NCBI GenBank assembly: GCA_963205275.1
Contig: CAUJIH010000093.1
Coordinates: 1-64,000, forward strand
Reading direction: 5' to 3'
DNA from: Verrucomicrobiota bacterium
GTDB taxonomy: Bacteria; Verrucomicrobiota; Verrucomicrobiia; Verrucomicrobiales; DEV007
Length of the DNA: 64,000 bases
A program made the translations under genes and the position numbers. The notes under the pieces were generated by a model. The model ran no database searches. It was not told the origin of the DNA and worked only from the letters and a program-made list of their open reading frames with translations. Below, in pieces: positions 102 through 48,091 of this stretch. How positions within the stretch are numbered: the stretch's first letter is position 1; each line of letters starts with the position of its first letter.

Positions 102-794
102 ATCAGAATTATCAATTGTCAAGAGGCGCTAATCAATTACCTTGACGGTTATCCTACATCGCATCAATGCAAGTTGGAATTGGATGTTCTGACCGTCCAT
201 TTCCCGAAATATTATGCGGGTAAAGATAAGAACTATTCGCAGGCTGAAGACACAGATTCTCCGATCCCGGCACCTTTTCCTGTAGTCGCCCGAGATCAGG
301 AATTCAAATTTGTTTTGATTGCTTTGGGATCGACTGAGAATCAAGCCGAATCCATGCGTCTTCTTGAAATCGCCGAAACATGTCTGAAAAATGCTTTGAA
401 AGAACATGGCGTAGGAGGAAAGACCCGTGCCGGATATGGGCGGTTTCGCGAGGCTGGAGGGCCACAGCAAATCCTGAGTGAAACCTTTGACGATCTATTC
501 GTCGCCCAGACAGCCTCGTCCACCAGTACCCAAAACGCAGATCCACATGAGAATCCCGCATCTCCGCAAGATCAAAGACTACTCGATTTTGTGGCAACGT
601 GGCAGACGGCATTGATTCCTGATGGCATCAATAGGTTTGCAGCGGAGCTTCGAAAACTCCCGAAAGAAATGCAAGTCGAAGCATTCTCCCAATGCGTGCC
701 GGAAGAACGACGCGTTCAGGACGATGCTCTCTGGTTTGCATTCAAGAACCGCCACCACGGCAAAGAACTTTTGCTTCATCTCAACATTCGGTAA
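102..794 (+). pseudogene. cmr6: Cmr6 RAMP protein lacking its N-terminal half
   Basis: Cmr6 is a RAMP-fold subunit of the type III-B effector that helps cap the crRNA-bound backbone. The reading frame opens right after the TAG at 99-101. Seen here are the middle Cmr6 motif (LDGYPT, then LELDVLTVHFPKYYAG) and the C-terminal glycine-rich RAMP loop GVGGKTRAGYGRF, followed by a polar extension of about 110 residues. The N-terminal RAMP half, which normally carries a PYIPGSSLKG-type motif, is in none of the three + frames upstream. The first usable start is TTG 174, which cuts into the conserved core. TAA 792-794 sits 2 bases before cmr1, as in an intact operon. The gene is probably broken by an internal deletion. 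A second, full-length cmr6 elsewhere or an assembly fault cannot be excluded. Confidence 0.65.
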
Positions 795-796
795 TA

Positions 797-1738
797 ATGT
801 CCACACAAACACTGGAACTGCTCTCCCCGTGCTTTTGCGGCGGTGCAAACGGAAAAGAAGGTGACGCCGAGTTGCGCATCCCGAGCATCCGCGGGCAGTT
901 GCGCTACTGGCTGAGAATCGTCTGCCATGATAAAGATTATCCCAACACGACAACAAAAAAAGAACATGCCGTTTTTGGTGGGATTCGCGGACGGGCATTG
1001 GGATTCCATGTCTCGGCCAAAGGCGGAGCCGTCGTGGATTCGGTCGCTTCACGAGTCGCTTTGGAGACATCTGTGATGTCTCCCCTCGGGAAAGAATCCT
1101 ATCCCATGTGCCCTCATAAAACCGGAACAGACGCCGCGCCTCGAAACGGTCTTTCACCAGATCAATCCTTCCATCTCTCTTGGCAACTACTCTTGGACGA
1201 TGCGGCGGTCAAATCCGATTTCCTTTGCGCGCTCAAGGCATGGGTGCTGTTGGGCGGTCTGGGAGCACGTTCCAACCGGGCTGCTGGTTCCATCTGGCGA
1301 AAGAATTGGAAACCCACTGAAGCCGATTTCCTCAAACTGGTGAAATCGTTATGGGGAGGAAATGCCCTACCCGATTATCTCCGGGTAAAGGTGCTTCGGC
1401 TTTTGACTCAAGAGGAACTCGATAACTATAAGCCCGAGTCGAAACGCAGCGGATGGGGCTCGACTTCATGTGATGATCCCATGCTTCTCCGAACCATCGC
1501 TACCGATACGCTTCAATTGGGGAATGACTGCGGCGGCGCATTGGGCTTTGGAGGACCGAACGGCAGAAAGGCATCCCCCCTCAAGTTGAAAATCGGCCAT
1601 TTTTCTGATGGTCACAGGCTTATCGCCGTCTTGGATAAAAGGAATAATCGCGACGGCGACATCGCATGTGCGGTGAAGCGCCTTCAAGCTGTCAACAAGC
1701 CGCTTGGTCTGCTGCTTGCCGAAGCTAAGATCGGCTAA
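797..1738 (+). CDS. cmr1: Cmr1 (Cas7-like RAMP subunit of type III-B complex)
   Basis: This 313-residue RAMP protein is predicted to sit at one end of the Cmr effector and help position target RNA. The N-terminus has the Cmr1 signature: LLSPCFCGGA, then AELRIPSIRGQLRYWLR, then VFGG. The second glycine-rich loop is GGLGARSNRAAGSIW (about residues 160-175). A third glycine-rich stretch, GGALGFGGPNG, lies near residue 250. I start at ATG 797, two bases after the cmr6 stop, because the family begins with this hydrophobic strand; the frame is open further upstream over cmr6. Length and motifs look intact, in contrast to cmr6. Confidence 0.88.
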   Translation: MSTQTLELLSPCFCGGANGKEGDAELRIPSIRGQLRYWLRIVCHDKDYPNTTTKKEHAVFGGIRGRALGFHVSAKGGAVVDSVASRVALETSVMSPLGKESYPMCPHKTGTDAAPRNGLSPDQSFHLSWQLLLDDAAVKSDFLCALKAWVLLGGLGARSNRAAGSIWRKNWKPTEADFLKLVKSLWGGNALPDYLRVKVLRLLTQEELDNYKPESKRSGWGSTSCDDPMLLRTIATDTLQLGNDCGGALGFGGPNGRKASPLKLKIGHFSDGHRLIAVLDKRNNRDGDIACAVKRLQAVNKPLGLLLAEAKIG

Positions 1739-1778
1739 CGAATATGAAATCCGCCCACACATCCAGAATATCTATCTT

Positions 1779-2656
1779 ATGAACCTCATCACAGTCAGCA
1801 TGCTCCTGACCAACGCCATCCAATTCGCCGCGCGCGCTCATCTGGGGCAAGTTCGCAAAGGCACCGAGACGCCCTACATCGTGCATCCGTTCGCGGTGGG
1901 GATGATCCTTGCCCGGCTTGGATTCCCCGACCAAGTCATCGCCGCCGGTCTGTTGCACGATACACTGGAGGATACGGGAGTCACGCGGACGCAACTGGCT
2001 GAAGCGTTCGGCGACGAAATCGCCTCCATCGTGGTTGCTTGCTCCGAACCCGACAAATCCCTCGGATGGCGGGAACGCAAACAACACACCATCGACACTC
2101 TGGAGTCCGCTCCTTGGACCGTGAAGGCCGTGGCTGCCGCCGACAAACTGGACAACTTGCGAGCCATGAGGCCGATTTCGCCCAAGTCGGCGCGGTGCTC
2201 TGGCAGCGCTTTAGGCGGGGACGGGACGAACAGGAATGGTACTACCGCTCGATTTTCCAAGCCTTGATCAGCCAGAGTTCACATACTCCTCCCGAATTTT
2301 TGAGCTTGCTCGCAAAGTATGATGAGACATTGGAACATTTCTTTCTGCGAACACGCTGTTCGCGCACCATCACCGTGAAGCGCGACGAGGCGGAGCGTTG
2401 TCGCGACGAGAAAGTTGACGGACGCTGCCGTTGGCTTCTGGCGATTGACGGTGAAACTTTGGCGGCGAGGTTCGTTCAGCACGATCACTCAGGTTTTGTC
2501 GCCGAAGCTCAGGGACACGAGGATTTTTTCCCCGTCGGAATGCTCTTTGAACACGAGGATGCCTTCCTCGAAGCTGGCGACTGGACGTCGGTGTCGACTT
2601 CCAAGCTGAGGCTACATGACGGTGTTTACCGCAGCTATCATGTCAAATGGGCGTAA
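1779..2656 (+). pseudogene. MESH1/RSH-like HD hydrolase, frameshifted near 2160
   Basis: From ATG 1779 the protein has the HD hydrolase motifs of small (p)ppGpp hydrolases (MESH1/SpoT N-domain): YIVHPFAV, LLHDTLED and ADKLDNLR, with the metal-binding His, HD, ED and Asp all present. After DNLR the frame loses similarity and stops at 2267. The -1 related frame continues the fold at once (SHEADFAQVGAVLW, then WYYRSIFQAL) and runs to 2656. Loss of one base at 2160-2162 explains this: restoring it gives DNLRSHEADF. Beyond the HD fold lie about 100 residues of unknown type (LLAIDGETLAARF). It lies between cmr1 and a ring-nuclease candidate, so it could be an ancillary nucleotide hydrolase of the CRISPR locus (inference). 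A sequencing error is an alternative to true inactivation. Confidence 0.7.
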
Positions 2657-2765
2657 TTTATCCGTATTTTCGTCGCAAGCAATCCAACATCGGCCATGCC
2701 AGCACTCGAAAACTCACTGAATCCCGCGCCGTGAAAAGCAATTTTGACCTAAAATTTCTCATCTC

Positions 2766-3134
2766 ATGATCCTTCTCGGTAACACCTATCCTCTCAGTCT
2801 CATTCGCCGCCCCGTGAGCATCGTGCCCACGTCGCTGGACGAGTTGCGCCGCCGCGCTCAATCCGAAGGCATCCTTTCCTTCTGGGGACACAGCAACACC
2901 ACGAAAGTGGCGGCGGAATTCCTGGGCTTTGATCCGACCCCGCACACACAAAGACCTGCGATCACCCTTAGTCAGGAAATGCTCCCATCGCTGGACGGGC
3001 AGACCTTCAACGAAGTCTGGGTGTTGTCTCCCGACTACATCCCCGGCTATCGGCCACAAATCGGCGAGGAGGTTTCAGTGAATCAGATTGCAGGATGGCA
3101 GGTACTGCGGATCGGGTTTTCAATCAATCCATGA
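2766..3134 (+). CDS. DUF1874-like probable ring nuclease (Crn2/AcrIII-1 type)
   Basis: This 122-residue protein is related to DUF1874, whose viral (AcrIII-1) and cellular (Crn2) members degrade cyclic tetra-adenylate and switch off type III signalling. The order of elements fits: an N-terminal LLGNTYPLSLI strand; GHSNTTKVAAEFLG near residues 41-54, with the His at 42 where the family has its catalytic GH-x-x-TA histidine; then RPAITLS and a C-terminal YRPQIGEE region in place of the usual RLPEG-type stretch. Similarity outside the GH motif is modest, so a related family such as Csx16 remains possible. It stands alone, 109 bases after the HD gene and 67 bases before the membrane CARF gene, as expected for a negative regulator of cOA effectors. 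Confidence 0.6.
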   Translation: MILLGNTYPLSLIRRPVSIVPTSLDELRRRAQSEGILSFWGHSNTTKVAAEFLGFDPTPHTQRPAITLSQEMLPSLDGQTFNEVWVLSPDYIPGYRPQIGEEVSVNQIAGWQVLRIGFSINP

Positions 3135-3201
3135 TACTTTCATCCCTTGCACCAAAACGACTTGCGGAAACACTTAGACATCGTTCACTTTAAAGTTGCT
3201 C

Positions 3202-4323
3202 ATGAGCTCCCTTCGTCAATTCCTGAACTTCCTTCGTCAACCTCTCGATTGGCCTCGGCTGAGAAAATCAGTAGATGGCTCTCTTTGCAAACTCGCTTTA
3301 TTTGCCCTTGGGGTCTTGACCCTCGGTCACACCTTTGCTGTCACCACATGGGAAATGCTCGAATATCGCTTCCCGTGGTATCTGTTCCTCGTTTCTTGTC
3401 TTGTCGTCTTCATCTTGTCCTCCGCTTGGCTGCGCGTGCATCGCTTTAGAAACAGGTGGGAGAACTTTGCCGCATTTATCCTCGCATTGACAGTAGGGCA
3501 CTGGATTGCTTTGGATTTCCACCATCTTCTCGCTCATGGGTGGCACCTGCCGAAATGGATTATCACCTTGATCACGCTTTTCGGTTTGGTTCTCTGCACC
3601 TTCTTTCTTCACCACGTTCGTCACTCTTGGCGCGGCGTGGTCACCTTTGAACGCATCTCAGCCACAGAACGGGTAAAAAGATCGCCCATACATAATCTCG
3701 TAATCTTTCTCTCTCCTCCTACAACCGTACCTAAAATCGCCAACAAAATTAGCTTCAAAAAAACGAAAACGGGAGATGAATGGTTGGAACTCAGTGGCAT
3801 TCTGGCCGATGACATTTCACGAATGAACGACCTCGGGTTTCACAACTGGCAACAACCTCTTCGCGCCATCTTGCCACACGTGGAGAATCTCCGATCGCTA
3901 TGGATCGTCGTGTCCCGATCAAGCAATGGGAATACCGAAATCGCCGAACCTAAGCTGCCGGGAGAGAGCCCTGACAACACCCTAGGTTCGGCCCCCTATG
4001 GTAAAATCGCCGAAACGATCTTCGGACGCTATCTGGATTTGGCGACGACCGAAATCTACATCTCCGACCCGGTGGACTTCGAGGACTTCAAAACCTTGGA
4101 ACACTACATCCGCAGCAAGATTCTAGATGTCCTCCCGCGCGGTTCGAGTCGGTCGACTGCCATTGACATCACCGGCGGCATGAAGGTCAGCAGTGCTTTG
4201 GGAAGCTTACTCACCGTCAATGACGAAGCCGTTTTCCAGTATGTCCAGACGATCGCTACGGATGATCCCAAGGCCCAGATCTACGATGTCCGCAACAACA
4301 TCGCACCAGGCACGCCCGGATGA
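3202..4323 (+). CDS. Four-helix membrane protein with cytosolic CARF-like domain
   Basis: This 373-residue protein has four predicted membrane helices at about residues 29-49, 58-77, 86-107 and 119-138. A soluble part of about 230 residues follows. It begins with a strand-like HNLVIFLSPP and carries DITGGMKVSSALG near 320-333, a motif typical of the ligand-binding loop of CARF domains, which sense cyclic oligoadenylates. Placement among Cmr genes, beside a ring nuclease and Csx14, supports a cOA-triggered membrane effector, comparable in concept to Cam1 or Csx23. I cannot assign it to either. ATG 3202 is preferred over TTG 3196. No nuclease or protease motif is visible, so the output is probably made by the membrane part (inference). 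Confidence 0.7.
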   Translation: MSSLRQFLNFLRQPLDWPRLRKSVDGSLCKLALFALGVLTLGHTFAVTTWEMLEYRFPWYLFLVSCLVVFILSSAWLRVHRFRNRWENFAAFILALTVGHWIALDFHHLLAHGWHLPKWIITLITLFGLVLCTFFLHHVRHSWRGVVTFERISATERVKRSPIHNLVIFLSPPTTVPKIANKISFKKTKTGDEWLELSGILADDISRMNDLGFHNWQQPLRAILPHVENLRSLWIVVSRSSNGNTEIAEPKLPGESPDNTLGSAPYGKIAETIFGRYLDLATTEIYISDPVDFEDFKTLEHYIRSKILDVLPRGSSRSTAIDITGGMKVSSALGSLLTVNDEAVFQYVQTIATDDPKAQIYDVRNNIAPGTPG

Positions 4324-4495
4324 TCCTGTTCCCCTGCAAGTTGTCATCAACTCGATCACGAGCTTTGCCGCTTGGACCACCCTGCGAACAGGCTCTGGAT
4401 GAGGTGGCGCGGCGCACTCATGGATAGTGTTGAGTCATTTCCGTCGCCTCTGTATCCCCGCAGAATTCTCTATGCCCCCTCCTGTTGCCCCTCTC

Positions 4496-5614
4496 ATGAA
4501 AACCACTCTCATTGCCGTCAGCGGGATGTCGCCCGCGATCCTCACCGAGACTGTCTGGGCGCTCGCCCATGAGACGCCGCTCGTGGTGCCGGACGAGGTC
4601 GTCGTGATCACGACCTCTCGAGGTGTGTGCGACATCGAGGAACTGCTGCTGACACCTCTCGATGTCTGGGGCGGCGAAACCGTGTGGTCTTGCCTGCGAC
4701 GGGACATATTCGCCCTCGCCAAGCTGCCCCAGAAGAGCGCTAGGCTGCAACTCGCCACACGCGTCATTGAGCTGCCCGACGCGGCGACCGGTGTGAAACG
4801 AAAGGCCTCCGACCTGCGCAGTCGCGAGGACAACGACAGCGCGGCCGACTTCATCGTCCAGGTTCTCGCGCCCTACGCCGATGCGGAGGACAATCGCGTC
4901 ATCGCCAGCATCGCCGGCGGGCGCAAGACCATGGGTGCGCTGCTCTACGCCGCCATGAGCCTACTGGGTAAGGAGGGCGACCGCGTTACTCATGTGCTAG
5001 TAAGCGAGCCCTTCGAGAACTGCCGCAGTTTCTTCTACCCCGGTCAACCCGTCCAAGCCCTAGAGGCGCGTCCCTATGGGCAGTCCCCTACTTCCATCCA
5101 AGCTGCGGACGCCGCCATCGAGCTGGCCGACATTCCCTTCGTCCCCCTACGCAACAAATTCGAGGAACTCAACGAACCCCGCCGCACCTTCGCGGGGCTG
5201 GTGGAAGCGTATTCAAAGGCCGAGCGTCAGGTGCTCAAACATGCTCCCCAAGTCTCGCTGGATATCGCGAAAGGTATTCTGAAGGTGGAGGGTCGATCTC
5301 TCAAGTTGACTGGACGCGACTTGCTCATCATCGCCTTCCTCCACGATCACGCTATCAAAGGCGGTCGGCATTTTCGCAACAAGGACGAGGCCGCCGACGA
5401 TCTCGCCTCTTTCATGGATTCCTGGAAAAAGCGGCATCCCTTTCATCAAGCGACCACGCGCCTGAGCGGAGGCATGGCGACGGTGGACGACATCCCCAAA
5501 GCCCTGAACTCTCTGCGAACGCAACTCAGAAATAAGGGGCTCTCCGGCGCCGTTCCTTGGCTCGCCCCCGAACGAAGCCGCATCGGCTTCGACATCGCGA
5601 ACGGATCCGGCTGA
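4496..5614 (+). CDS. csx14: Csx14/NE0113-family CARF protein
   Basis: This 372-residue protein begins MKTTLIAVSGMSPAILTET and continues VVPDEVVVITTSRG, the N-terminal signature of the CRISPR-associated NE0113 family (PF09623, Csx14). SIAGGRKTMGALLYAAM (about residues 138-154) is the second conserved CARF loop. The C-terminal 130 residues are mostly helical with a helix-turn-helix-like segment (GRDLLIIAFLHDHAI). Such proteins are thought to sense cyclic oligoadenylate; whether they regulate transcription or degrade the ligand is unsettled. ATG 4496 is chosen because family members start at this strand; ATG 4472 is the alternative. The 172 bases upstream hold no recognisable gene. Confidence 0.8.
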   Translation: MKTTLIAVSGMSPAILTETVWALAHETPLVVPDEVVVITTSRGVCDIEELLLTPLDVWGGETVWSCLRRDIFALAKLPQKSARLQLATRVIELPDAATGVKRKASDLRSREDNDSAADFIVQVLAPYADAEDNRVIASIAGGRKTMGALLYAAMSLLGKEGDRVTHVLVSEPFENCRSFFYPGQPVQALEARPYGQSPTSIQAADAAIELADIPFVPLRNKFEELNEPRRTFAGLVEAYSKAERQVLKHAPQVSLDIAKGILKVEGRSLKLTGRDLLIIAFLHDHAIKGGRHFRNKDEAADDLASFMDSWKKRHPFHQATTRLSGGMATVDDIPKALNSLRTQLRNKGLSGAVPWLAPERSRIGFDIANGSG

Positions 5615-5695
5615 GGAGACCGTTCTCTCCGCCTTCCGAAATCCCCGGATTTCCCCGAACGCGCAAGGACCACCTTTCGCATCGAAGCTTGGAGC

Positions 5696-7297
5696 ATGAA
5701 CCACCAACCCTCCTCCTCACACAATCGTCGCTCCGACGACAACCCTGTCATCCAACTAGTTCGCGCTGATCTCTCCCGGCGCGGCGGTTTGGCACTGAAC
5801 CGTTTCTTCTTTTTTGCCACGATCTTCCTCCTCTCGCTGCTCTTCCTCGCGGGCTTCGTCCGCATCGGAGCACTGCTCTGGGTGAGGAGCGAGATCTCCA
5901 GTTCCACTGGCGAACTCGCCCGTGTAAGCGGCTTCGATGCACGCACCACTGGATGGCTCACCGGCCCGGTCTCCCTTATTTCCTCGGCGCTGGTGGCCGG
6001 GACCGTGCTGCGCATCCTGTTCGCGTTCCTCCTGCCGTGGACGAGGGGGCCCCACTTCTTTCGCTCGGTTTTCCTCGTGCTGGCGGCGACCGGATTCTTC
6101 GCGGTGGCGCCCGGAATCATCACCGACTTTCGCGGGCTGGATGAAGGTGGCCTGCCCGCAAAGATGAGCGAGATCGATCCTGCGGAGGTGGACTGGTTCA
6201 CTCCGGGCAACGTACCGCTCCTTTTCTACGCCGACCATCTCGACGGACAGCGCCGCTTCTGGAACCGGCCCGGACACACTCCTAAGGACGGGGCCGTGGC
6301 CTATCCAGTGACTGAGGAAGTGCGTCGCTCTTGGGAGGAGGCAGAACAACGTAAATCCGCCGAGCAGCGCCGTCTCGAGCGGGAAGCCTCTCTGCGGCAG
6401 CAGGAGCAGAGGAACGAAAAGCTGGCGCGGGAGCATAAGGAAGCGCTCGCCAAGCTGGAGACAACCCGTGAAGAACTCGTGCGATCCGCCGGAAAATTTA
6501 CTAATGCTTCCGGCCATCCAGTAGGAATGGAGCAGCGAGGTTCCTCCGACGCTAAGCCTGTCGTGTCTTTCGGGAAGGCAGCGCCCGGTGGTTCCGGCAA
6601 AAGGACGGTGCCTCCCGGATTCCTCTCTCCCCAACCCAGTGCCCCGTCACCACTGCCGCCCGCCGATTTTGATTTCGAGGTGTTTCCGGGGCGCTTCCTC
6701 CAACTCGGGTTGTCGCGGCGATCCGCAGAAATCTGGGCCGACGGCACCGTGGAAATTTCACGTCCCGGATCCGACGATGTGATTGTGGTTGGATCTGGGA
6801 TGCGCCGTAGCTTCAACCAGGCCGATACCCTGCTAGTGAGCCCGGTAGGCACGTCTTCCGTCCGCCTGCGCTTGCGCTGGCTGGAAGGGGGGCGGGAGAG
6901 CCCTTCTGTGGCCTATCTGCCTGTCGCTCCCGTCAAGGAAGCCACCACGCCGTCTGTGTCGCCTTCCGATCTTTGGCCTGCGGCACTGGTATCGGTTCCC
7001 AGCATAGCACCAGTGCCAGCATCGCCACGACCTCCGCAATGCTTCCCTTTGTATCCGGGCAAAGTTTTCCATATTTCGGTTCACAGCGATACCGTGGAAT
7101 GCTGGAGCGACGGCCCTGTGATCGTTGGTGCGGGCAGCTCTGGGGGCGGGGTCCGGGAATTGGAGGCGTATCAGCGCATCCGGATTTCAGGTTCCCCCAA
7201 AATTCATGCCGCTCCGGCGGCCCGGGAAACGCGGCATTTTTTTGTCCAACCGATTGCACCGAGTCCGGCGCGAATGCAGCAGATGGTCGGCTACTGA
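5696..7297 (+). CDS. Unknown membrane protein with coiled coil and duplicated beta domain
   Basis: I do not recognise this 533-residue protein. It has two strong membrane segments (about residues 36-60 and 87-115) and a third weaker one (about 124-145). A charged Glu/Arg/Gln coiled coil follows at about 210-265, then a Pro/Ser linker. Two related beta-rich modules come last: one starts FPGRFLQLGL and reads AEIWADG, the other starts YPGKVFHISV and reads VECWSDG, so the second looks like an internal duplication. It starts 81 bases after csx14 and ends 10 bases before the reverse transcriptase, so it is probably co-transcribed with the CRISPR genes. Long minus-strand frames over it lack these features and are treated as spurious. 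Confidence 0.72.
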   Translation: MNHQPSSSHNRRSDDNPVIQLVRADLSRRGGLALNRFFFFATIFLLSLLFLAGFVRIGALLWVRSEISSSTGELARVSGFDARTTGWLTGPVSLISSALVAGTVLRILFAFLLPWTRGPHFFRSVFLVLAATGFFAVAPGIITDFRGLDEGGLPAKMSEIDPAEVDWFTPGNVPLLFYADHLDGQRRFWNRPGHTPKDGAVAYPVTEEVRRSWEEAEQRKSAEQRRLEREASLRQQEQRNEKLAREHKEALAKLETTREELVRSAGKFTNASGHPVGMEQRGSSDAKPVVSFGKAAPGGSGKRTVPPGFLSPQPSAPSPLPPADFDFEVFPGRFLQLGLSRRSAEIWADGTVEISRPGSDDVIVVGSGMRRSFNQADTLLVSPVGTSSVRLRLRWLEGGRESPSVAYLPVAPVKEATTPSVSPSDLWPAALVSVPSIAPVPASPRPPQCFPLYPGKVFHISVHSDTVECWSDGPVIVGAGSSGGGVRELEAYQRIRISGSPKIHAAPAARETRHFFVQPIAPSPARMQQMVGY

Positions 7298-7307
7298 AAA
7301 TCTCAAG

Positions 7308-8834
7308 ATGAAGGATGATCGAAGACACCGCTACGACGGGGCTTGCCACGACTCCAGAGTGGTGGACATGGAAGCCGTCCTGTCGCCCGAATCCGGTCGC
7401 ATCGCGTTCGGGAAGGTGCGTTCCAACCGGGGAGCACCGAGATGCGACAGCGTCACTGTCGAGGAACTGGAAGCTGTGTTTCCTGCGCAATGGGCGGAAC
7501 TGGGACGCAGCATCAAGGCAGGAACCTATCGGCCCCATCCGCTCCGGCGAGTCGAAATCCCAAAAGCGGATGGAGGCGTGAGGAAGCTCGGCATCCCGTC
7601 GGTGATGGACCGGGTCGTGCAGCAGGCTCTGGCTCAGGCGCTCGCTACGATCTTCGAGCCTAGGTTCTCGCCGTCGAGTTTCGCTTACCGTCCGGGACGG
7701 AGCGCCATCGATGCGGTGAAAAGCATCCAAGCCCGTCTCCGCCACGACGACGGGTTTTCAGCCTTGCATCTCGACATCCGCTCCTTTTTCGATTCGGTGG
7801 ACCACGGTCTGGTGCGGGACCATTTGTCCGGGCAACCCGTCACAGCCGAAGTACTCGATCTGGTAGATGTGTCGATCCGCTGCGGCGTGCTTGAAAAGGG
7901 CTTGGTTCGCTCGTCGGCGGCGGGCATCCCGCAAGGCAGTCCGCTCTCGCCGCTGCTCGCCAACGTGGTGCTAGATTCCTTCGACAGATGGTTGACGCGG
8001 AGACATGTCGCCTTCGCCCGCTACGCCGACGACCTCTTGTTGCTCGTGCCCAGTCTCGCGGAGGGGCGGCGGCTGATCGAAGAGGCGGCGGATTTTCTCT
8101 CCCGCGTCCTCCGGCTCGAACTCAACAAGGAAAAAACTCGGCTCGGCCATTGGTCGCGGGCGTCTTTTCTCGGATTCGGATTCCGAGCGGATGCAGCAGG
8201 AGGCGTCCGCCGCTGTGTCAGCCCGGAATCCCTCGCCGCCTGTCGGGCCGAGGTCGAAAATCTCGCTGCGGCAAACGGGGGAGGGCCGGAAAGGGCCATT
8301 GTGGAAACGAGGAGGTTTCTCAGCGGCTGGACCGCCTACTACCGCCATACCGAATTCGCCGAAGACATCCGCGAACCATACGCGGTGGCGCGCGACCGCG
8401 TGCGCATGTGCCGCTGGGCCGCATGGGAGAGCGCGGAAAACCGACAGCGGGAATTGATCTGTCTCGGCATCGATCCAGAGTCGGCGGCGGCAGCGGCCCG
8501 CGAAATCCCGCCGCCCCTGCCGCTGCTGAGATGCGCCATGCCCGACGAATCATTCCGGGGCCACGGGCTCGCCGATCCGCTGGCACCGGCCTGGCCCGGC
8601 GAACCCGGGAGACAGGCCGCCGCCCGCATGGAATACGGAGGCTCCATCCCCCGCAGCACGTCACACGCCCGGATCCGCTGGGGCGACTCCTTGCTGTGGT
8701 TCCTGCGCCGTCTCTTCCGCTCCCGGCTGCTCCGGGTGCGCTTGGAAACCTGCCGATCCCGGCGGGGATTTCTGCCCCGCCCCTCCGCCATTGGCATCGA
8801 AATCGGTGGCTTCTGTTTCCGTTTCCGTTTGTGA
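7308..8834 (+). CDS. CRISPR-associated reverse transcriptase (group II intron-like)
   Basis: This 508-residue RT is predicted to support spacer acquisition from RNA with Cas1 and Cas2. RT motifs appear in order: PKADGGVRKLGIPSV, SFAYRPGRSA, ALHLDIRSFFDSVDH, AGIPQGSPLSPLLAN, the catalytic FARYADDLLLL, and LNKEKTRLGHW. A maturase-like thumb segment (FLSGWTAYYRH) follows near residue 340. It is not fused to Cas1 but lies 21 bases upstream of it. ATG 7308 follows the previous stop by 10 bases. The Arg-rich, low-complexity C-terminal tail (after about 420) is unusual. No group II intron RNA or DGR template repeat is seen nearby, which argues for a dedicated CRISPR RT. Confidence 0.88.
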   Translation: MKDDRRHRYDGACHDSRVVDMEAVLSPESGRIAFGKVRSNRGAPRCDSVTVEELEAVFPAQWAELGRSIKAGTYRPHPLRRVEIPKADGGVRKLGIPSVMDRVVQQALAQALATIFEPRFSPSSFAYRPGRSAIDAVKSIQARLRHDDGFSALHLDIRSFFDSVDHGLVRDHLSGQPVTAEVLDLVDVSIRCGVLEKGLVRSSAAGIPQGSPLSPLLANVVLDSFDRWLTRRHVAFARYADDLLLLVPSLAEGRRLIEEAADFLSRVLRLELNKEKTRLGHWSRASFLGFGFRADAAGGVRRCVSPESLAACRAEVENLAAANGGGPERAIVETRRFLSGWTAYYRHTEFAEDIREPYAVARDRVRMCRWAAWESAENRQRELICLGIDPESAAAAAREIPPPLPLLRCAMPDESFRGHGLADPLAPAWPGEPGRQAAARMEYGGSIPRSTSHARIRWGDSLLWFLRRLFRSRLLRVRLETCRSRRGFLPRPSAIGIEIGGFCFRFRL

Positions 8835-8855
8835 ATTACCCCTCCATCGCTTGTC

Positions 8856-9854
8856 ATGCCCACTCTCGCTATCCAAAGTTCCGACTCCAAAGTGTCGCTC
8901 GAGTCCAAGTGCCTCATTGTCTCCTCCCGTGCAGATGGGGAGGAGAAATGCTCTTCCGTGCCGCTGATTGAGATTGAGCGTGTCCTGCTGTGCAGCCGCG
9001 CCCACATCACCACGCCCGCGCTCGCGGAGCTGATGCGGCGCGGCATCCCCGTGTCCGTAGTCACATCGCGCGGGCGTTTCCTCGGTTCCTTCGAAGCTCC
9101 CGGTCCCGCCCGAGGTCTCATGCGCCTAGCCCAGTATCAGCGGCAGGGCGATCCTTCTTTCTCTTCCGTGATCGCCGGAAAGCTGGTGACCGCGAAGATA
9201 TCCAACCAGAGAAGGCTGTTGCAGCGCGTCGATTCGAACCACGGAATCCTCAGCGATTTGGTCGGCAAACGGCTCGCCTCCTTCGCGGAACGGGCCGAGA
9301 ACTCTGCATCGGTCGATCTCATCCGAGGATTGGAAGGTGCAGCAGCAGCGGAATTCTACGAGGCCTGGGCGTGTTTCCTGCCTGCGGCTTTCCCTTTCGA
9401 GAAGCGATCCTTGCGCCCGCCTCTCAATCCTGTCAACGCATGTCTCTCCTACATCGCGTCGCTGCTCTACGGCGAACTCCTCAGTGCCTGCCATGCGAGA
9501 GGACTCGATCCGGCGCTCGGGCATCTCCACCCGTCCACCGACCAGCGCTGGTCCCTGCCGCTCGACCTGATGGAACCCTTCCGCCCTTGCGTCATCTACG
9601 CGCTGACGTTGCGCCTCTTCTCCCACCGCATCCTCAAACAAGGCGATTTCGAGGCGAAAAGTGGTGGCACCTATTTGAACGACGGTGGGCGCCGCACTCT
9701 CCTGAATCACTACGAAAAAACCATGGAGCGAGAGCATTTCTCTGAGTTTGCGCAATGCCGCACAAGTCTTCGGCGGCAGATTCAGGAAGCACCCCTGCAC
9801 TACAAGACGAGTTTGGCCGATCCAGCTCGCTTCGCCCCCTTTCGCATGAATTGA
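8856..9854 (+). CDS. cas1: Cas1 integrase
   Basis: Cas1 is the metal-dependent integrase that inserts prespacers at the leader end of the array, as a Cas1-Cas2 complex. The 332-residue protein has the N-terminal beta domain (residues 1-80) and a helical catalytic domain. The conserved Glu sits in RGLEGAAAAEFYEAW, and the His and acidic residues sit in GHLHPSTDQRWSLPLDLMEP, so the active site looks intact. Length is normal. It follows the RT gene by 21 bases and precedes cas2 by 22. Confidence 0.95.
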   Translation: MPTLAIQSSDSKVSLESKCLIVSSRADGEEKCSSVPLIEIERVLLCSRAHITTPALAELMRRGIPVSVVTSRGRFLGSFEAPGPARGLMRLAQYQRQGDPSFSSVIAGKLVTAKISNQRRLLQRVDSNHGILSDLVGKRLASFAERAENSASVDLIRGLEGAAAAEFYEAWACFLPAAFPFEKRSLRPPLNPVNACLSYIASLLYGELLSACHARGLDPALGHLHPSTDQRWSLPLDLMEPFRPCVIYALTLRLFSHRILKQGDFEAKSGGTYLNDGGRRTLLNHYEKTMEREHFSEFAQCRTSLRRQIQEAPLHYKTSLADPARFAPFRMN

Positions 9855-9876
9855 ATGCCCCCATCTTCTCGCCGTC

Positions 9877-10251
9877 ATGGGAAGCGTCACTACCATCTCC
9901 CGGGCCGAAACCGATTGGTGGGACGACTTGCTTCCGCCCCGCCCCCATCCCAAACCGCCTGCCTCCGAAGAAATGCTCCGCCTCATCGCCTACGACATCG
10001 CCGACGAACGCCGTCTCCGCCGCATCGCCAAGGTATGCGAGGGCTTCGGAGTGCGCGTCCAGAAAAGTCTCTTCGAATGCTGGTTGGACGAAGACTGCTT
10101 CGAGGAGATGTGGTCTCTACTTTTGGGAGAAATGAAGGAAGCGGAAGATTTCCTCGTCGCCTACCCAATCGATGTTCGTAGCGCCCGCAAACGCCGCACC
10201 GCCGGGCGAGGCATGATCATCACCGAGAAGCGTTCTCGGTATGTTTTTTGA
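9877..10251 (+). CDS. cas2: Cas2
   Basis: Cas2 is the small structural dimer that bridges two Cas1 dimers during integration. The core starts MLRLIAYDIADERRLRRIA at residue 33 and includes VQKSLFECWLDE, the usual ferredoxin-like Cas2 fold. From ATG 9877 the protein has a 32-residue Pro-rich N-terminal extension and 124 residues in total. Starting at ATG 9973 gives a canonical 92-residue Cas2 and is equally plausible. The start is 22 bases after cas1, and the array leader follows directly. Confidence 0.93.
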   Translation: MGSVTTISRAETDWWDDLLPPRPHPKPPASEEMLRLIAYDIADERRLRRIAKVCEGFGVRVQKSLFECWLDEDCFEEMWSLLLGEMKEAEDFLVAYPIDVRSARKRRTAGRGMIITEKRSRYVF

Positions 10252-10470
10252 CGCGCAGGGAGTAGGTCGAGGTCAGAGCTTTGCCGAAGCGGAAACCGAG
10301 GGAGGCCTGACTTCGATGATTGCGATCATGTTATCTGTTTATAGAGAATAATATAGGAAGATTTTTGTAGACGAGTAAACAGGAGTGGTATCCCGATTTC
10401 GGCGTGCCCGAACGACCTCTGACTTTTCTAGGAAGTTGACAACTGAATTAAAAGGAAATACGAATTAGGT
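10252..10470 (+). promoter_or_regulatory. CRISPR leader
   Basis: These 219 non-coding bases lie between cas2 and the first repeat. The last 140 or so are AT-rich compared with the surrounding coding DNA (for example ATAGAGAATAATATAGG near 10340). Position next to cas2 and before the first repeat, together with the repeat's ATTGAAGAC 3' end, places the leader here and transcription on the + strand. No specific promoter hexamers are claimed. Confidence 0.7.
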
Positions 10471-11623
10471 GTCCGCTAAGGACACACAGCCGAAAGGCAT
10501 TGAAGACCAGTATTCCGCGATCTTTTCTGGTGCCGATATATCCGTCCGCTAAGGACACACAGCCGAAAGGCATTGAAGACATTTCGACGAAGCCCCAATG
10601 CAGCAATCCCGCCGTCTTCGTCCGCTAAGGACACACAGCCGAAAGGCATTGAAGACCACGAGCTAATTCGTACTGAATACGACTCATATTTAACTGTCCG
10701 CTAAGGACACACAGCCGAAAGGCATTGAAGACCATCCCTGTTGGGACATCCTCATACCCGTACTCTGTGTCCGCTAAGGACACACAGCCGAAAGGCATTG
10801 AAGACTCCGGCCACTCGATCGCCACCCGGCACTCACTGATCCGCGTCCGCTAAGGACACACAGCCGAAAGGCATTGAAGACCAAAATTACAATGGTGACA
10901 GTCTTCAATCCTTTGAAGAAGTCCGCTAAGGACACACAGCCGAAAGGCATTGAAGACAAGGTTGGTTCTGGCCAAAGAGAACACTAATATGGCGTCCGCT
11001 AAGGACACACAGCCGAAAGGCATTGAAGACTATGGCGTTTTTCTTGGGTAGAGCCTCCAGACGCATAGTCCGCTAAGGACACACAGCCGAAAGGCATTGA
11101 AGACTGATAATCCCAGAGCTTCAAAGAAATCCCCTTGCTTCAAGTCCGCTAAGGACACACAGCCGAAAGGCATTGAAGACAAGGTTGGTTCTGGCCAAAG
11201 AGACCACTAATATGGCGTCCGCTAAGGACACACAGCCGAAAGGCATTGAAGACGGCGTGAGCGATGGCCACAGCCACCGGCAACGACGCCGGTCCGCTAA
11301 GGACACACAGCCGAAAGGCATTGAAGACGGGACCTCACACCCTCAGGCATAGGACACTTCATTTGTGTCCGCTAAGGACACACAGCCGAAAGGCATTGAA
11401 GACACCGTGAGAAATTGCCACAGCCACAGGTAGGCTGGCGTCCGCTAAGGACACACAGCCGAAAGGCATTGAAGACCGGCGGTCTTCCCATCATTGGTGG
11501 TCTTCCCATCGGCGTCCGCTAAGGACACACAGCCGAAAGGCATTGAAGACTGGTGACAGATTTTCGAGTCTAACTCGATTTCCCTCGTCCGCTAAGGACA
11601 CACAGCCGAAAGGCATTGAAGAC
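10471..11623 (+). CRISPR. CRISPR array, 16 repeats and 15 spacers
   Basis: Sixteen copies of a 37-base repeat begin at 10471, 10544, 10620, 10696, 10769, 10845, 10921, 10994, 11068, 11144, 11217, 11292, 11367, 11440, 11514 and 11587. I found no mismatch in any copy, including the last. The repeat begins GTCCGCTAAGGAC, which can fold as GTCC/GGAC, and ends GGCATTGAAGAC, an ATTGAA-type 3' handle typical of type III arrays. Spacers are 36-39 bases. Spacers 7 (10958-10993) and 10 (11181-11216) differ by one base. Spacers 11 and 13 are related. Spacer 14 contains an internal repeat. The uniform repeats suggest a young or homogenised array. Apparent reading frames through the array are artefacts. 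Confidence 0.98.
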
Positions 11624-11820: not shown

Positions 11821-11841
11821 AATACACGTCATCGGGAGTGA

Positions 11842-12093
11842 AGGAAGAGTAGCGTGGACAATCCTGTCCGCGAAAGCCGTTCATGGGAGCGCCAACGAGG
11901 ACGTAGGCGGCCCCAGGCTGGGGTAGTGGAGGAAGAGTAGCGTGGACAATCCTGTCCGCGAAAACCATTCCTGGGAGCGCCAACGAGGACGTAGGCGGAC
12001 CCAGGCTGGGGTAGTGGAGGAAGAGTAGCGTGGACAATCCTGTCCGCGAAAGCCATTCCTGGGAGCGCCAACGAGGACGTAGGCGGCCCCAGG
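11842..12093. repeat. 88-bp tandem repeat, 2.9 copies
   Basis: Copies start at 11842, 11930 and 12018, each beginning AGGAAGAGTAGCGTGGACA; the third is cut short at about 12093. Copies differ at only a few positions. Each contains a near-perfect hairpin (GGACA, ATCC, TGTCC) and a second stem around CCCCAGGCTGGGG. A related single copy lies at 21415-21470, so the element is dispersed as well as tandem. No coding potential is credible. The rest of this intergenic stretch (12094-12152) holds nothing recognisable. Confidence 0.85.
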
Positions 12094-44569: not shown

Positions 44570-47500
44570 ATGTCCGCCATGTGGGAACCCCCTTTACCGG
44601 AAGAGCTTCAGGCGCTCCTCCCCCAGTACGAGATTACAGGCATCCTCGGTCGAGGCGGCATGGGTGCCGTCTATCGCGGTCGCCAGCCCCGGCTGGATCG
44701 TGATGTCGCCATCAAGCTCCTCCCGGAAACTCTGCTGGCGGGCGGCGATGAGATGAACTACGCCAAGCGCTTCGAGCAGGAAGCCCAAGCGATGGCCAAG
44801 CTCAGTCATCCGGGGATTATCGCCGTCTATGACTTCGGCGAAACCAGCGCAGGGCAGTTCTACTTTGTGATGGAGTTCATCGACGGGATGGACATCCATC
44901 AATATCTAAAACAGTCGGGTGGCAAGATTCCACAAAATGATGCCATCGCCATCGTTTCCCATGTGCTCGATGCACTCAGCTACGCCCACTCCCACGGGAT
45001 CGTCCATCGCGACATCAAGCCCGCTAATATTCTGCTCGACCGCGAAGGGCGAATCAAAATCGCCGATTTCGGCTTAGCGAAACGCTTCACCGGAGGCGAA
45101 ACCTCGGGTTTGACACTGAGCAACGTCGCCGTGGGTACCCCCGACTTCGTCGCCCCCGAGTCGCTGGTCATGGGAAGGACAGTCGATCAGCGTGCTGACA
45201 TCTACGCCGTCGGCGTGATGCTCTACCAATTGCTCACCGGACAGATCCCGCGAGCTGGTTATAAATTCCCAAGTGAACTCGATCCGGAGATTGATTCACG
45301 ACTCGACGAGATCGTGAGTAAAGCCATCGAGCCAGACCCAGAATTTCGCTACAGCAGCGCAGAAGCAGTCAGAAGCGCCATCGATATCGTTCTGACTCGG
45401 CCTATTTCGCGAGTGAAGAAGGGAACGGTCGGGAGTGTCGCAAAATCAAAAATTCCTCTGTATGCGGGAATCGGAATTGCCGCCGTGCTCGTGATCAGTC
45501 TGATCGCGTTCTTTGCGATGCGCCCTGGCGAGCCGGAAAGTAAAACTGGCACTCTGCCATCGTCATCGCCAGCAACTTCCGGCCCCCGTGACCCTGCTCT
45601 CGCTCGTGCCACGAAAGACCAGCCCTTCGTCAACAGCCTTGGGATGAAGTTCGTCCCCGTACCCGGAACCAAGGTGCTCTTCTGCATCCACGAAGCCCGC
45701 TACAAGGATTACGCAGAATACGCCAAGGAGGAGAAGATCGATGATAGTTGGAGGGACCAGACCTACGACGGCTTCAAGATCACGCAAGATGGCGACAATC
45801 ATCCTGTCTCTCGGGTGAGCTGGGACGATGCGCAAAAGTTCTGCGAATGGCTGAGCAAGAAAGAGGGCAAAACATATCGTTTGCCAACCGACGAGGAATG
45901 GAGCTATGCGGTCGGGATAGGCGACCGGGAAACTCGAGGCGCTGGGGTGACGCCGGAAAGTCTCAGTGACCAGATAAAGGACCATTTCCCTTGGGGTACG
46001 GAATGGCCACCTCCTGTGGGAGCGGATAACTACAGCGATCAGAGTCGCAAGAAGAAAGCACCTCGCCCGACGGCGAATTACCTAGAGGGATACGACGACG
46101 GATTTCCGACGACTGCACCGGTGATGAGCTTTGCGCCGAACAACTTCGGGCTGTACGATTTGGGCGGGAACGTGTTGGAATGGTGCGAAGATTTGATTTC
46201 AAATGGACAGAAAGACCGCGTGTTGCGCGGCGCGTCTCAGAATAACAGTGATCGCTTCTCTCTGCTCTCGTCCCGGCGCACACGCAACTCCCCCGAAGTT
46301 CGAAATCCCTTCTACGGATTTCGCGTTGTCCTCGTATCGGAGGGAGGCCCAAAAGCCCCCACCGAAACCAACAAACCCTCATCATCCCAAGTCTCGGCAT
46401 CGCCTTCTCAAATCATTGCGCCCTCATCCTCGCCAGCGGTTTCAGGCTCCCGCGACTCAGCTCTCGCCGGAGCAACGAAAGACCAGCCCTTCGTGAATAG
46501 CCTCGGGATGAAATTCGTCCCCGTACCCGGCACTCATGTGCTCTTCTGCATCCACGAAACCCGCTACAAGGACTACGCGGAATACGCTAAGGAGGAGAAG
46601 ATCGATGATAGTTGGAGGGACCAGACCTACGACGGCTTCGAGATCACGCAAGATAGCGACAATCATCCTGTCTCTCGGGTGAGCTGGGACGATGCGCAAA
46701 AGTTCTGCAAATGGCTGAGCAAGAAAGAGGGCAAAACATATCGTCTGCCCACCGACGAGGAATGGAGCTATGCGGTCGGGATAGGCGAGCAGGAGGTTCG
46801 CGGGGACAGCATCACGCCTGCGAGCCTCAATCAAAAGATCCCGGATCACTTCCCCTGGGGGGCTGAGTGGCCACCGCCAGCGGGAGCGGGCAACTACAGC
46901 GACGCGAGTCGCAAAGCGAAGGCACCTTCTTCCAACACGAGTTATCTGGATGGTTACGACGACGGCTTTACGACGACTGCGCCGGTGATGAGCTTCGCGC
47001 CGAACAAGCTTGGACTGTACGATATGGGAGGCAACGTGTGGGAATGGTGCGAAGATTTGGTTTCAGAGGAACACAAAGAGCGCGTGTTGCGCGGCGGGTC
47101 CTGGGGTAACTGCGAGCGCGGCGGTCTGCACTCGTCGAGCCGCACTCGTTTCCTCCCCGGCTATCGGAGCGATTACTACGGCTTTCGCGTTGTCCTCGTA
47201 TCGGAGGGCACCCCAAAAGACTCCACCGAAACCAGCAAGCCCACATCGCTCCAAGTCTCGGCACCGCCTGCTCAAACTGCTCCGGCATCATCTTCGCCAG
47301 CGACTTCAGACTCCCGCGACTCAGCTCTCGCCAGAGCCACAAAAGACCAGCCCTTCGTGAATAGCCTCGGAATGAAATTCGTCCCCGTACCTGGAACCAA
47401 GGTGCTCTTCTGCATCCACGAAACCCGCTACAAGGACTACGCGGAATACGCTAAGGAGGAGAAAGAGAAGGTGAACGACGAGTGGAAGAATCAGACCTAC

Positions 47501-48091
47501 GGAGGCTTCGAGATCAAACAGGATGGGGGCGATCATCCCGTAACGAAGGTGAGTTGGAATGACGCACAAATGTTCTGCGAATGGCTGAGTAAGAAAGAGG
47601 GCAAAACCTATCGTCTGCCTACAGACGAGGAATGGAGCTACGCCGTCGGGATCGGTGAGCAGGAGGCCCCTGGGGACCACATCGCGCCTGCGAGCCTGAG
47701 CAGAAAGATTTCGGACCGTTTCCCCTGGGGTACGGAATGGCCACCTCCTGCGGGAGCGGGTAACTACAGCGATCAGAGTCGCAAGAAGAATGCACCTTAC
47801 AAGGACCAGAGCTATCTGGAGGGATACGACGACGGCTTTCCGACAACTGCGCCAGTGATGAGCTTCACACCGAGCAAGCTTGGGCTTTACGATTTGGGCG
47901 GGAATGTGTTGGAATGGTGCGAGGATTGGGCTTCAGAGGAACGCGAATTGCGCGTGGTACGCGGCTCGGCTTGGCTGAACTGCGAGCGTCACCTTCTGCT
48001 CTCGTCCGTCCGCCCTCGATACGTCCCCGACGCTCGGTACGACAGCTGCGGGTTTCGCGTTGTCCTCGCTCTCGCGCCGTCGGTTCCGTGA
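44570..48091 (+). CDS. Ser/Thr kinase with three extracytoplasmic FGE-sulfatase domains
   Basis: This 1,173-residue Pkn2-type kinase has an N-terminal catalytic domain (about residues 20-280): GRGGMGAVYRG, VAIKLLPE, HRDIKPANILL, IADFGLAKR and a TPDFVAPE loop, all intact. One membrane helix lies near 296-318. Three formylglycine-generating-enzyme/sulfatase-modifying-factor domains follow (about 350-595, 637-885, 925-1172), separated by Ser/Pro linkers. The FGE cores are nearly identical in DNA over long stretches, pointing to recent duplication or gene conversion. The last 29 codons before GFRVVL in each domain differ sharply. The FGE domains are probably binding modules outside the cell. ATG 44570 is preferred; ATG 44579 and TTG 44564 are alternatives. 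Confidence 0.9.
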   Translation: MSAMWEPPLPEELQALLPQYEITGILGRGGMGAVYRGRQPRLDRDVAIKLLPETLLAGGDEMNYAKRFEQEAQAMAKLSHPGIIAVYDFGETSAGQFYFVMEFIDGMDIHQYLKQSGGKIPQNDAIAIVSHVLDALSYAHSHGIVHRDIKPANILLDREGRIKIADFGLAKRFTGGETSGLTLSNVAVGTPDFVAPESLVMGRTVDQRADIYAVGVMLYQLLTGQIPRAGYKFPSELDPEIDSRLDEIVSKAIEPDPEFRYSSAEAVRSAIDIVLTRPISRVKKGTVGSVAKSKIPLYAGIGIAAVLVISLIAFFAMRPGEPESKTGTLPSSSPATSGPRDPALARATKDQPFVNSLGMKFVPVPGTKVLFCIHEARYKDYAEYAKEEKIDDSWRDQTYDGFKITQDGDNHPVSRVSWDDAQKFCEWLSKKEGKTYRLPTDEEWSYAVGIGDRETRGAGVTPESLSDQIKDHFPWGTEWPPPVGADNYSDQSRKKKAPRPTANYLEGYDDGFPTTAPVMSFAPNNFGLYDLGGNVLEWCEDLISNGQKDRVLRGASQNNSDRFSLLSSRRTRNSPEVRNPFYGFRVVLVSEGGPKAPTETNKPSSSQVSASPSQIIAPSSSPAVSGSRDSALAGATKDQPFVNSLGMKFVPVPGTHVLFCIHETRYKDYAEYAKEEKIDDSWRDQTYDGFEITQDSDNHPVSRVSWDDAQKFCKWLSKKEGKTYRLPTDEEWSYAVGIGEQEVRGDSITPASLNQKIPDHFPWGAEWPPPAGAGNYSDASRKAKAPSSNTSYLDGYDDGFTTTAPVMSFAPNKLGLYDMGGNVWEWCEDLVSEEHKERVLRGGSWGNCERGGLHSSSRTRFLPGYRSDYYGFRVVLVSEGTPKDSTETSKPTSLQVSAPPAQTAPASSSPATSDSRDSALARATKDQPFVNSLGMKFVPVPGTKVLFCIHETRYKDYAEYAKEEKEKVNDEWKNQTYGGFEIKQDGGDHPVTKVSWNDAQMFCEWLSKKEGKTYRLPTDEEWSYAVGIGEQEAPGDHIAPASLSRKISDRFPWGTEWPPPAGAGNYSDQSRKKNAPYKDQSYLEGYDDGFPTTAPVMSFTPSKLGLYDLGGNVLEWCEDWASEERELRVVRGSAWLNCERHLLLSSVRPRYVPDARYDSCGFRVVLALAPSVP
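46232..46318 (+). other. Hypervariable 29-codon segment of FGE domain 1
   Basis: This segment lies between a conserved CGCGTGTTGCGCGGC and TTTCGCGTTGTCCTC. It aligns without gaps to the matching segments of domains 2 and 3, yet most codons differ at bases 1 or 2 while the flanks are almost unchanged. Codons such as TTC, TCT, AAC, TCC and GTT occupy positions that read GGC, GGT, TTC, CTC and TAT in domain 2. Confidence 0.6.
47096..47182 (+). other. Hypervariable 29-codon segment of FGE domain 2
   Basis: It has the same flanks as in domain 1 and aligns gap-free. The protein reads GSWGNCERGGLHSSSRTR and on to DYYGFR, the place where C-type-lectin-fold FGE proteins expose a variable surface. This is the copy closest to the common FGE consensus (RGGSW). 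Confidence 0.6.
47966..48052 (+). other. Hypervariable 29-codon segment of FGE domain 3
   Basis: This is the third gap-free copy, near the 3' end of the gene. Across the three copies, 18 of 29 codons differ at base 1 or 2, and 12 of those 18 keep a pyrimidine third base in all three copies. That is the pattern expected if the ancestral codons were AAY and adenines were mutated. Confidence 0.6.

What the first reader, a model, noticed from the sequence alone, without database searches (positions are those of the whole stretch)
44570..48091. Three DGR-like variable segments in one kinase-FGE protein
The three FGE domains are almost identical in DNA over long runs, yet the 29 codons before the shared TTTCGCGTTGTCCTC differ strongly and without gaps. 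Eighteen of 29 codons differ at base 1 or 2; 12 of those keep a pyrimidine third base in all three copies, and 8 keep the same pyrimidine (for example TTC/GGC/CAC, TCT/GGT/CTT, AAC/TTC/TAC, GTT/TAT/GCT). This is what adenine-directed mutagenesis of AAY codons gives in diversity-generating retroelements, whose targets are often FGE-type C-type-lectin folds. Here the segments would sit outside the cell on a receptor kinase, three per protein. Ordinary divergence of a surface-exposed loop is the main alternative.
Basis: partly seen in the sequence, partly recalled or inferred. Interest (0 to 1): 0.82.

Follow-up and report, generated by a model that had tools for sequence, protein, structure and literature searches.

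The report
Orphaned DGR-made loops on receptor kinase
A surface receptor kinase of an uncultured Verrucomicrobial bacterium carries three binding loops that look as if a diversity-generating retroelement (a gene-mutating reverse-transcriptase system) once wrote them, but the assembled genome no longer contains that system, so the loops are probably frozen relics.

Summary
The gene at 44570-48091 is a kinase with one TM segment and three FGE domains; three gap-free 29-codon segments differ as described (18/29 codons changed at base 1-2; 12 keep a pyrimidine third base, 8 the same one). An active diversity-generating retroelement (DGR) is not supported here: the 96.5%-complete assembly has no DGR-type RT, no Avd and no template repeat (TR), and the loops differ at third positions as much as their flanks. 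A DGR origin is supported. Congeners and order-mates carry intact DGRs whose variable regions sit at the same place in homologous FGE domains. In one congener (G033) a broken TR lies just downstream of a kinase-FGE gene, and three scattered FGE genes there (two verified kinase-FGE) match it at 71-73 of 74 non-adenine bases. The window's variable columns fall on that TR's adenines (p=3e-4). At the TR's AAY codons, 33/36 window codons end in a pyrimidine (flank 52%), and changed codons keep the TR's third base (7/30 differ; flank 98/186). Loops of a non-variable kinase-FGE paralogue lack this signature. Best reading: DGR-written loops, orphaned after loss of the machinery. Multi-loop DGR targets and kinase targets are already published.

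The parts
44570..48091 (+). Kinase-FGE receptor gene, 1173 aa, ATG at 44570
   Evidence: Translation; Pfam PF00069 E=1.1e-51 and PF03781 x3 E=1.3e-97
44627..45325 (+). Ser/Thr protein kinase domain (aa 20-252)
   Evidence: Pfam PF00069
45458..45520 (+). Probable single transmembrane helix LYAGIGIAAVLVISLIAFFAM, putting the FGE domains outside the membrane
   Evidence: Read from the sequence; topology inferred
45626..46342 (+). FGE domain 1
   Evidence: PF03781 and 78% identity to domain 2
46232..46318 (+). Variable segment 1 (ASQNNSDRFSLLSSRRTRNSPEVRNPFYG)
   Evidence: 15/28 TR adenine positions changed, 17/74 non-adenine mismatches to the congener TR
46490..47206 (+). FGE domain 2 (AlphaFold2 pLDDT 92; Foldseek hits FGE/SUMF and the DGR variable protein TvpA 2Y3C)
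47096..47182 (+). Variable segment 2 (GSWGNCERGGLHSSSRTRFLPGYRSDYYG)
   Evidence: 18/28 adenine positions changed, 12/74 non-adenine mismatches
47354..48070 (+). FGE domain 3
   Evidence: PF03781; 75% identity to domain 2
47966..48052 (+). Variable segment 3 (SAWLNCERHLLLSSVRPRYVPDARYDSCG)
   Evidence: 20/28 adenine positions changed, 16/74 non-adenine mismatches

Best explanation
The protein is a membrane receptor kinase whose three extracytoplasmic FGE (C-type-lectin fold) domains each end in a ligand-binding loop at the standard DGR variable-region site. The loops were most likely written by adenine-directed mutagenic retrohoming from an AAY-rich template repeat in this lineage, around the time the FGE domains were duplicated (shown: alignment to the A columns and third bases of a congener's TR; inferred: timing and writing in this lineage). 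The machinery was then lost or fell silent. The eight loops of this type on three kinases in the genome (C93, C94, C8) have since drifted as fixed sequences. Function inferred: different ligands bound by different loops regulate the cytoplasmic kinase.
For: Nine relatives' loci (eight TR/VR pairs by the scan plus G005 by homology to the G025 TR) carry DGR pairs, most with A-only mismatches and several with an adjacent RT and/or bAvd, writing FGE-domain targets at the same site. In G033 a TR lies about 155 nt downstream of a kinase-FGE gene, interrupted by 63 bp and without RT within the 4 kb held; VRs of three scattered FGE genes (C94 and C31 kinase-FGE; C7 fragmentary) match it at 73, 71 and 71 of 74 non-A bases with 7, 13 and 13 of 28 adenines changed. 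Window variable columns coincide with that TR's A columns (p=2.8e-4; codon positions 1-2 only, 1.9e-5). At the TR's AAY codons 33/36 window codons end in a pyrimidine versus 312/600 in the flank (p=1e-6) and 64/153 at variable flank codons. In changed codons the TR's third base differs in only 7/30 versus 98/186 for changed flank codons (p=0.003). Fourfold sites, box-matched, 15 family loops: 52/64 pyrimidine, 37 expected, p=6e-5. Control loops of a ~950-aa kinase-FGE paralogue: 58/103 versus flank 57%. Tree: own 8 domains lie in one supported clade (98/98) with the DGR-written G033 domains.
Against: For the window alone the box-matched fourfold test is only p=0.086, and for the genome's 8 loops other VR positions also show an excess (p=0.018). 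The TR compared is from another species. The three window loops are related, so p-values are not fully independent. Surface constraint alone would also place variation at exposed positions.
Confidence: 0.72

Rival explanations
1. An active DGR exists in the genome but lies in the unassembled part (or on a lost plasmid/phage contig) and still rewrites the three loops in trans.
For: Draft of 109 contigs, 96.5% complete. Trans-acting DGRs with scattered targets exist in G033 and in Thiohalocapsa PB-PSB1 (PMC10907252).
Against: No RT, Avd or TR found by family, protein or inferred-TR searches. Recently written VRs in G033 differ at 1, 3 and 4 of 27 third positions; the window trio at 11, 11 and 6 of 27 (p=2.5e-4). 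Silent divergence in the loops is as high as in flanks. The C94 contig end near its kinase gene holds an antitoxin-like gene, not a TR (gene identity read by eye).
Confidence: 0.12
2. Ordinary paralogue divergence under diversifying selection of an exposed ligand-binding loop; no DGR was ever involved in this lineage.
For: Silent divergence in loops equals flank; other parts of the FGE domain also vary (alignment); several paralogue loops contain codons not derivable from AAY.
Against: Pyrimidine third bases and retention of the TR third base in amino-acid-changed codons are not expected from selection on amino acids and are absent in the control paralogue loops. Proven DGR targets lie in the same clade.
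Confidence: 0.12
3. The loops differ because FGE cassettes were shuffled by recombination among paralogues; the variation was imported, not made in place.
For: Patchy identity along the domains, 3% to 31% nucleotide difference by block.
Against: The three window domains are one supported group (96/93) and no loop is identical to another one in the genome. It does not explain the codon-position signature.
Confidence: 0.04

Closest known systems
[quoted passage not shown] 2020, PMC7517822)
   Same: N-terminal Ser/Thr kinase, C-terminal CLec/FGE domain with the variable region at its 3' end; scattered paralogues with graded TR identity.
   Different: Verrucomicrobial; three FGE domains per protein; no DGR detectable in the genome.
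Thiohalocapsa PB-PSB1 DGR targets (Dore et al. 2024, PMC10907252)
   Same: Targets with several VRs (one with three), FGE-type CLec domains, kinase domain among target architectures, degenerate loci and trans writing.
   Different: There the RT/TR classes are present and population variation was seen; here none is found.
G033 (Akkermansiaceae bacterium UBA2367) kinase-FGE genes and relic TR
   Same: Closest homologues (67% identity of FGE domain); loops written from one TR.
   Different: TR still present though broken by 63 bp; other complete DGRs elsewhere in that genome.
Treponema denticola TvpA (PDB 2Y3C)
   Same: FGE-like C-type-lectin fold of a DGR variable protein; profile E=1.8e-16, Foldseek E=3.4e-9.
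   Different: 19% structural-alignment identity; not a kinase.

Membership tests
Complete (active) DGR | DGR-type reverse transcriptase in the genome | tested here: not met
   Only C93:7557 (GIIM domain, next to Cas1) and C56:8248 (PHROG 1423 RT, group-II-like)
Complete (active) DGR | Template repeat matching the VR except at adenines | tested here: not met
   DNA and protein searches with VRs and an inferred TR find only the VRs; assembly 96.5% complete
Complete (active) DGR | Accessory protein (Avd) | tested here: not met
   NF033474 and PF22296 no match; some DGRs lack Avd (own knowledge)
Complete (active) DGR | VRs identical to each other at non-adenine positions | tested here: not met
   Third-position differences 11, 11, 6 of 27; G033 trio 1, 3, 4 of 27
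Complete (active) DGR | Population-level variation at the VR | not testable with these tools
   No reads or same-species strains available
DGR variable protein (target), orphaned | C-type-lectin/FGE fold with variable region at the C-terminal end of the domain | tested here: met
   same site as VRs of eight DGRs in relatives
DGR variable protein (target), orphaned | Variation concentrated at template adenines, bases 1-2 of AAY codons, third base kept | tested here: met
   Against the congener TR; weaker in the paralogues on C94 and C8
DGR variable protein (target), orphaned | Close homologue demonstrably written by a TR | tested here: met
   G033 C94 and C31 kinase-FGE VRs (and fragmentary C7) versus relic TR, 1-3 of 74 non-A mismatches
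Formylglycine-generating enzyme | Catalytic cysteine pair and generation of formylglycine | not tested
   Domain used here only as a fold; catalysis not examined

The most novel reading that the evidence does not exclude
The lineage used a DGR to make a set of eight different receptor-kinase loops, then lost the DGR and kept the loops as a fixed repertoire, so DGRs can act as one-time generators of paralogue specificity rather than only as ongoing hypermutators.
Probability: 0.4. Interest if true: 0.58.

Novelty: new member of a known kind. Interest (0 to 1): 0.46.

Why it matters
It gives a codon-level way to recognise DGR-written loops after the DGR itself has gone (third base kept, bases 1-2 scrambled at former AAY codons, checked against a control paralogue). 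It also extends kinase-FGE DGR targets to Verrucomicrobial genomes, with one TR apparently serving several scattered genes. If confirmed, it means current DGR surveys, which need an RT and a TR, undercount proteins shaped by this mechanism.

Tried and rejected
RT at window 7125-8834: looked like a DGR RT candidate, rejected (GIIM domain, directly upstream of Cas1). C87:17077 weak RT hit (E=0.016): rejected, short alignment in a region that reads as helicase in another frame (helicase reading by eye). C68:13383 weak loop-like hit: has stops, not a TR. Idea that a contig break hides the TR beside the C94 kinase gene: the 437 nt to the contig end hold an antitoxin-like gene instead. The fourfold-site test on the window alone is not significant (p=0.086) and was not used as sole evidence. 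Viral contigs: distant FGE relatives only, 27-40% identity; not followed up. Structural mapping of variable residues onto the model surface was not done.

Full report
What is there. The ORF 44570-48091 encodes an N-terminal Ser/Thr kinase (aa 20-252), one hydrophobic helix and three FGE-sulfatase domains. The genome (G000; 4.08 Mb, 109 contigs, 96.5% complete) has 22 FGE domains in all; eight of them, on three kinases (C93 in the window, C94, C8), form one close group. Named relatives found with the protein are Verrucomicrobial MAGs such as Akkermansiaceae UBA2367, plus more distant groups. Neighbouring genes are housekeeping: rRNA methyltransferase, phosphodiesterase, pseudouridine synthase, DNA methylase, glycerate kinase.

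Search for the machinery here. RVT_1 hits: only two. One is next to Cas1 with a GIIM domain, the other group-II-like. A DGR RT query from G033 finds just these plus a spurious short hit. Avd: none. TR: none by VR DNA, VR protein, consensus-TR protein, or inferred-TR DNA.

Relatives. RT hits of about 330-390 aa led to eight TR/VR pairs with adenine-directed mismatches: G056 (two VRs, both caspase-FGE proteins), G033a (caspase-FGE), G033b, G013, G025, G030, G035 (one protein with two VRs from one TR) and G045; G005 matches the G025 TR. Pfam confirms caspase+FGE targets and bAvd in G056 and G033a. The VRs sit at the same place in FGE domains homologous to the window's.

Key comparison. In G033 (contig C94) a TR about 155 nt downstream of a kinase-FGE gene reads RVLRGGSWNNNERGN [63-bp insert] LLSSNRNRNTPENRNNNNGFRP. 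No RT is near it in the 4 kb held. Scored in two pieces, G033 loops on C94, C7 and C31 differ from it at 1, 3 and 3 of 74 non-adenine columns and at 7, 13 and 13 of 28 adenines; C31 is a kinase with two FGE domains; the C7 gene is split across frames, so its kinase part was not verified. One TR thus wrote scattered genes. The window loops differ at 17, 12 and 16 of 74 non-adenine columns (mostly third positions) and at 15, 18 and 20 of 28 adenines; their variable columns are enriched at the TR's adenines.

Codon-level test. At the 12 AAY codons of the TR, window codons end in a pyrimidine 33/36 times (flank 312/600; variable flank codons 64/153). Where the amino acid changed, the third base equals the TR's in 23 of 30 window codons, against 88 of 186 changed flank codons (p=0.003). 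Fourfold codons matched by codon box, 15 loops of the family: 52/64 pyrimidine, 37 expected (p=6e-5), other loop positions p=0.13. A control kinase-FGE paralogue found across the genus has conserved loops and no excess (58/103 versus 57% in flank). The signal is weaker in the C94 and C8 loops and, for the window alone, the fourfold test is not significant.

Timing. Conserved codons in the loops carry as many silent differences as the flanks (12/35 versus 119/477), and third-position differences are 28/81 against 8/81 in the G033 trio (p=2.5e-4). So the window loops have not been rewritten recently from one TR. They fit writing near the time of the domain duplications and drift since. Elsewhere in the genus some FGE loops are near-identical between species whose genes differ by 11-26% in DNA, so fixed loops are not unusual.

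Fold. Domain 2 models as an FGE fold (pLDDT 92) with matches to SUMF/FGE enzymes and to the DGR variable protein TvpA.

Known context. Kinase-CLec DGR targets and remote targets are described in cyanobacteria (PMC7517822); targets with several VRs, degenerate loci and trans writing are described in Thiohalocapsa (PMC10907252). What is added here is a DGR-lacking genome with loops that still carry the template's codon signature.

Limits. The TR used is from a different species; loops are related to each other; several tests were run and p-values are uncorrected; no same-species strains or reads were available.

Noticed in passing
window 692-11476: CRISPR-Cas locus with a RAMP protein (692-1738), a Cas_NE0113 protein (4427-5614), a GIIM-type RT (7125-8834) directly upstream of Cas1 (8856-9854), and a repeat array at 10769-11476 that looks like a CRISPR array.
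   Followed up: partly
window 11837-12093: 88-bp tandem repeat, 2.9 copies, 95% matches, just after the CRISPR-like array.
   Followed up: no
L094 (G033:C94), minus strand about 1990-1800: TR relic split by a 63-bp insertion whose ends read GGCAAT / CGCAAT, possibly a small mobile-element insertion.
   Followed up: no
L088:6487-10245 (G035): 1252-aa protein with two FGE domains, both VRs matching one TR at 93/93 non-adenine bases; an HRDC-domain protein is encoded between it and the RT.
   Followed up: partly
L104 (G033:C7): FGE gene whose loop matches the C94 TR but whose domain is split over two frames (frameshift or assembly error).
   Followed up: no
L025:1-436 (own C94): Antitoxin-like gene and start of a second gene, resembling a toxin-antitoxin pair, directly downstream of the C94 kinase-FGE gene (read by eye).
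   Followed up: no
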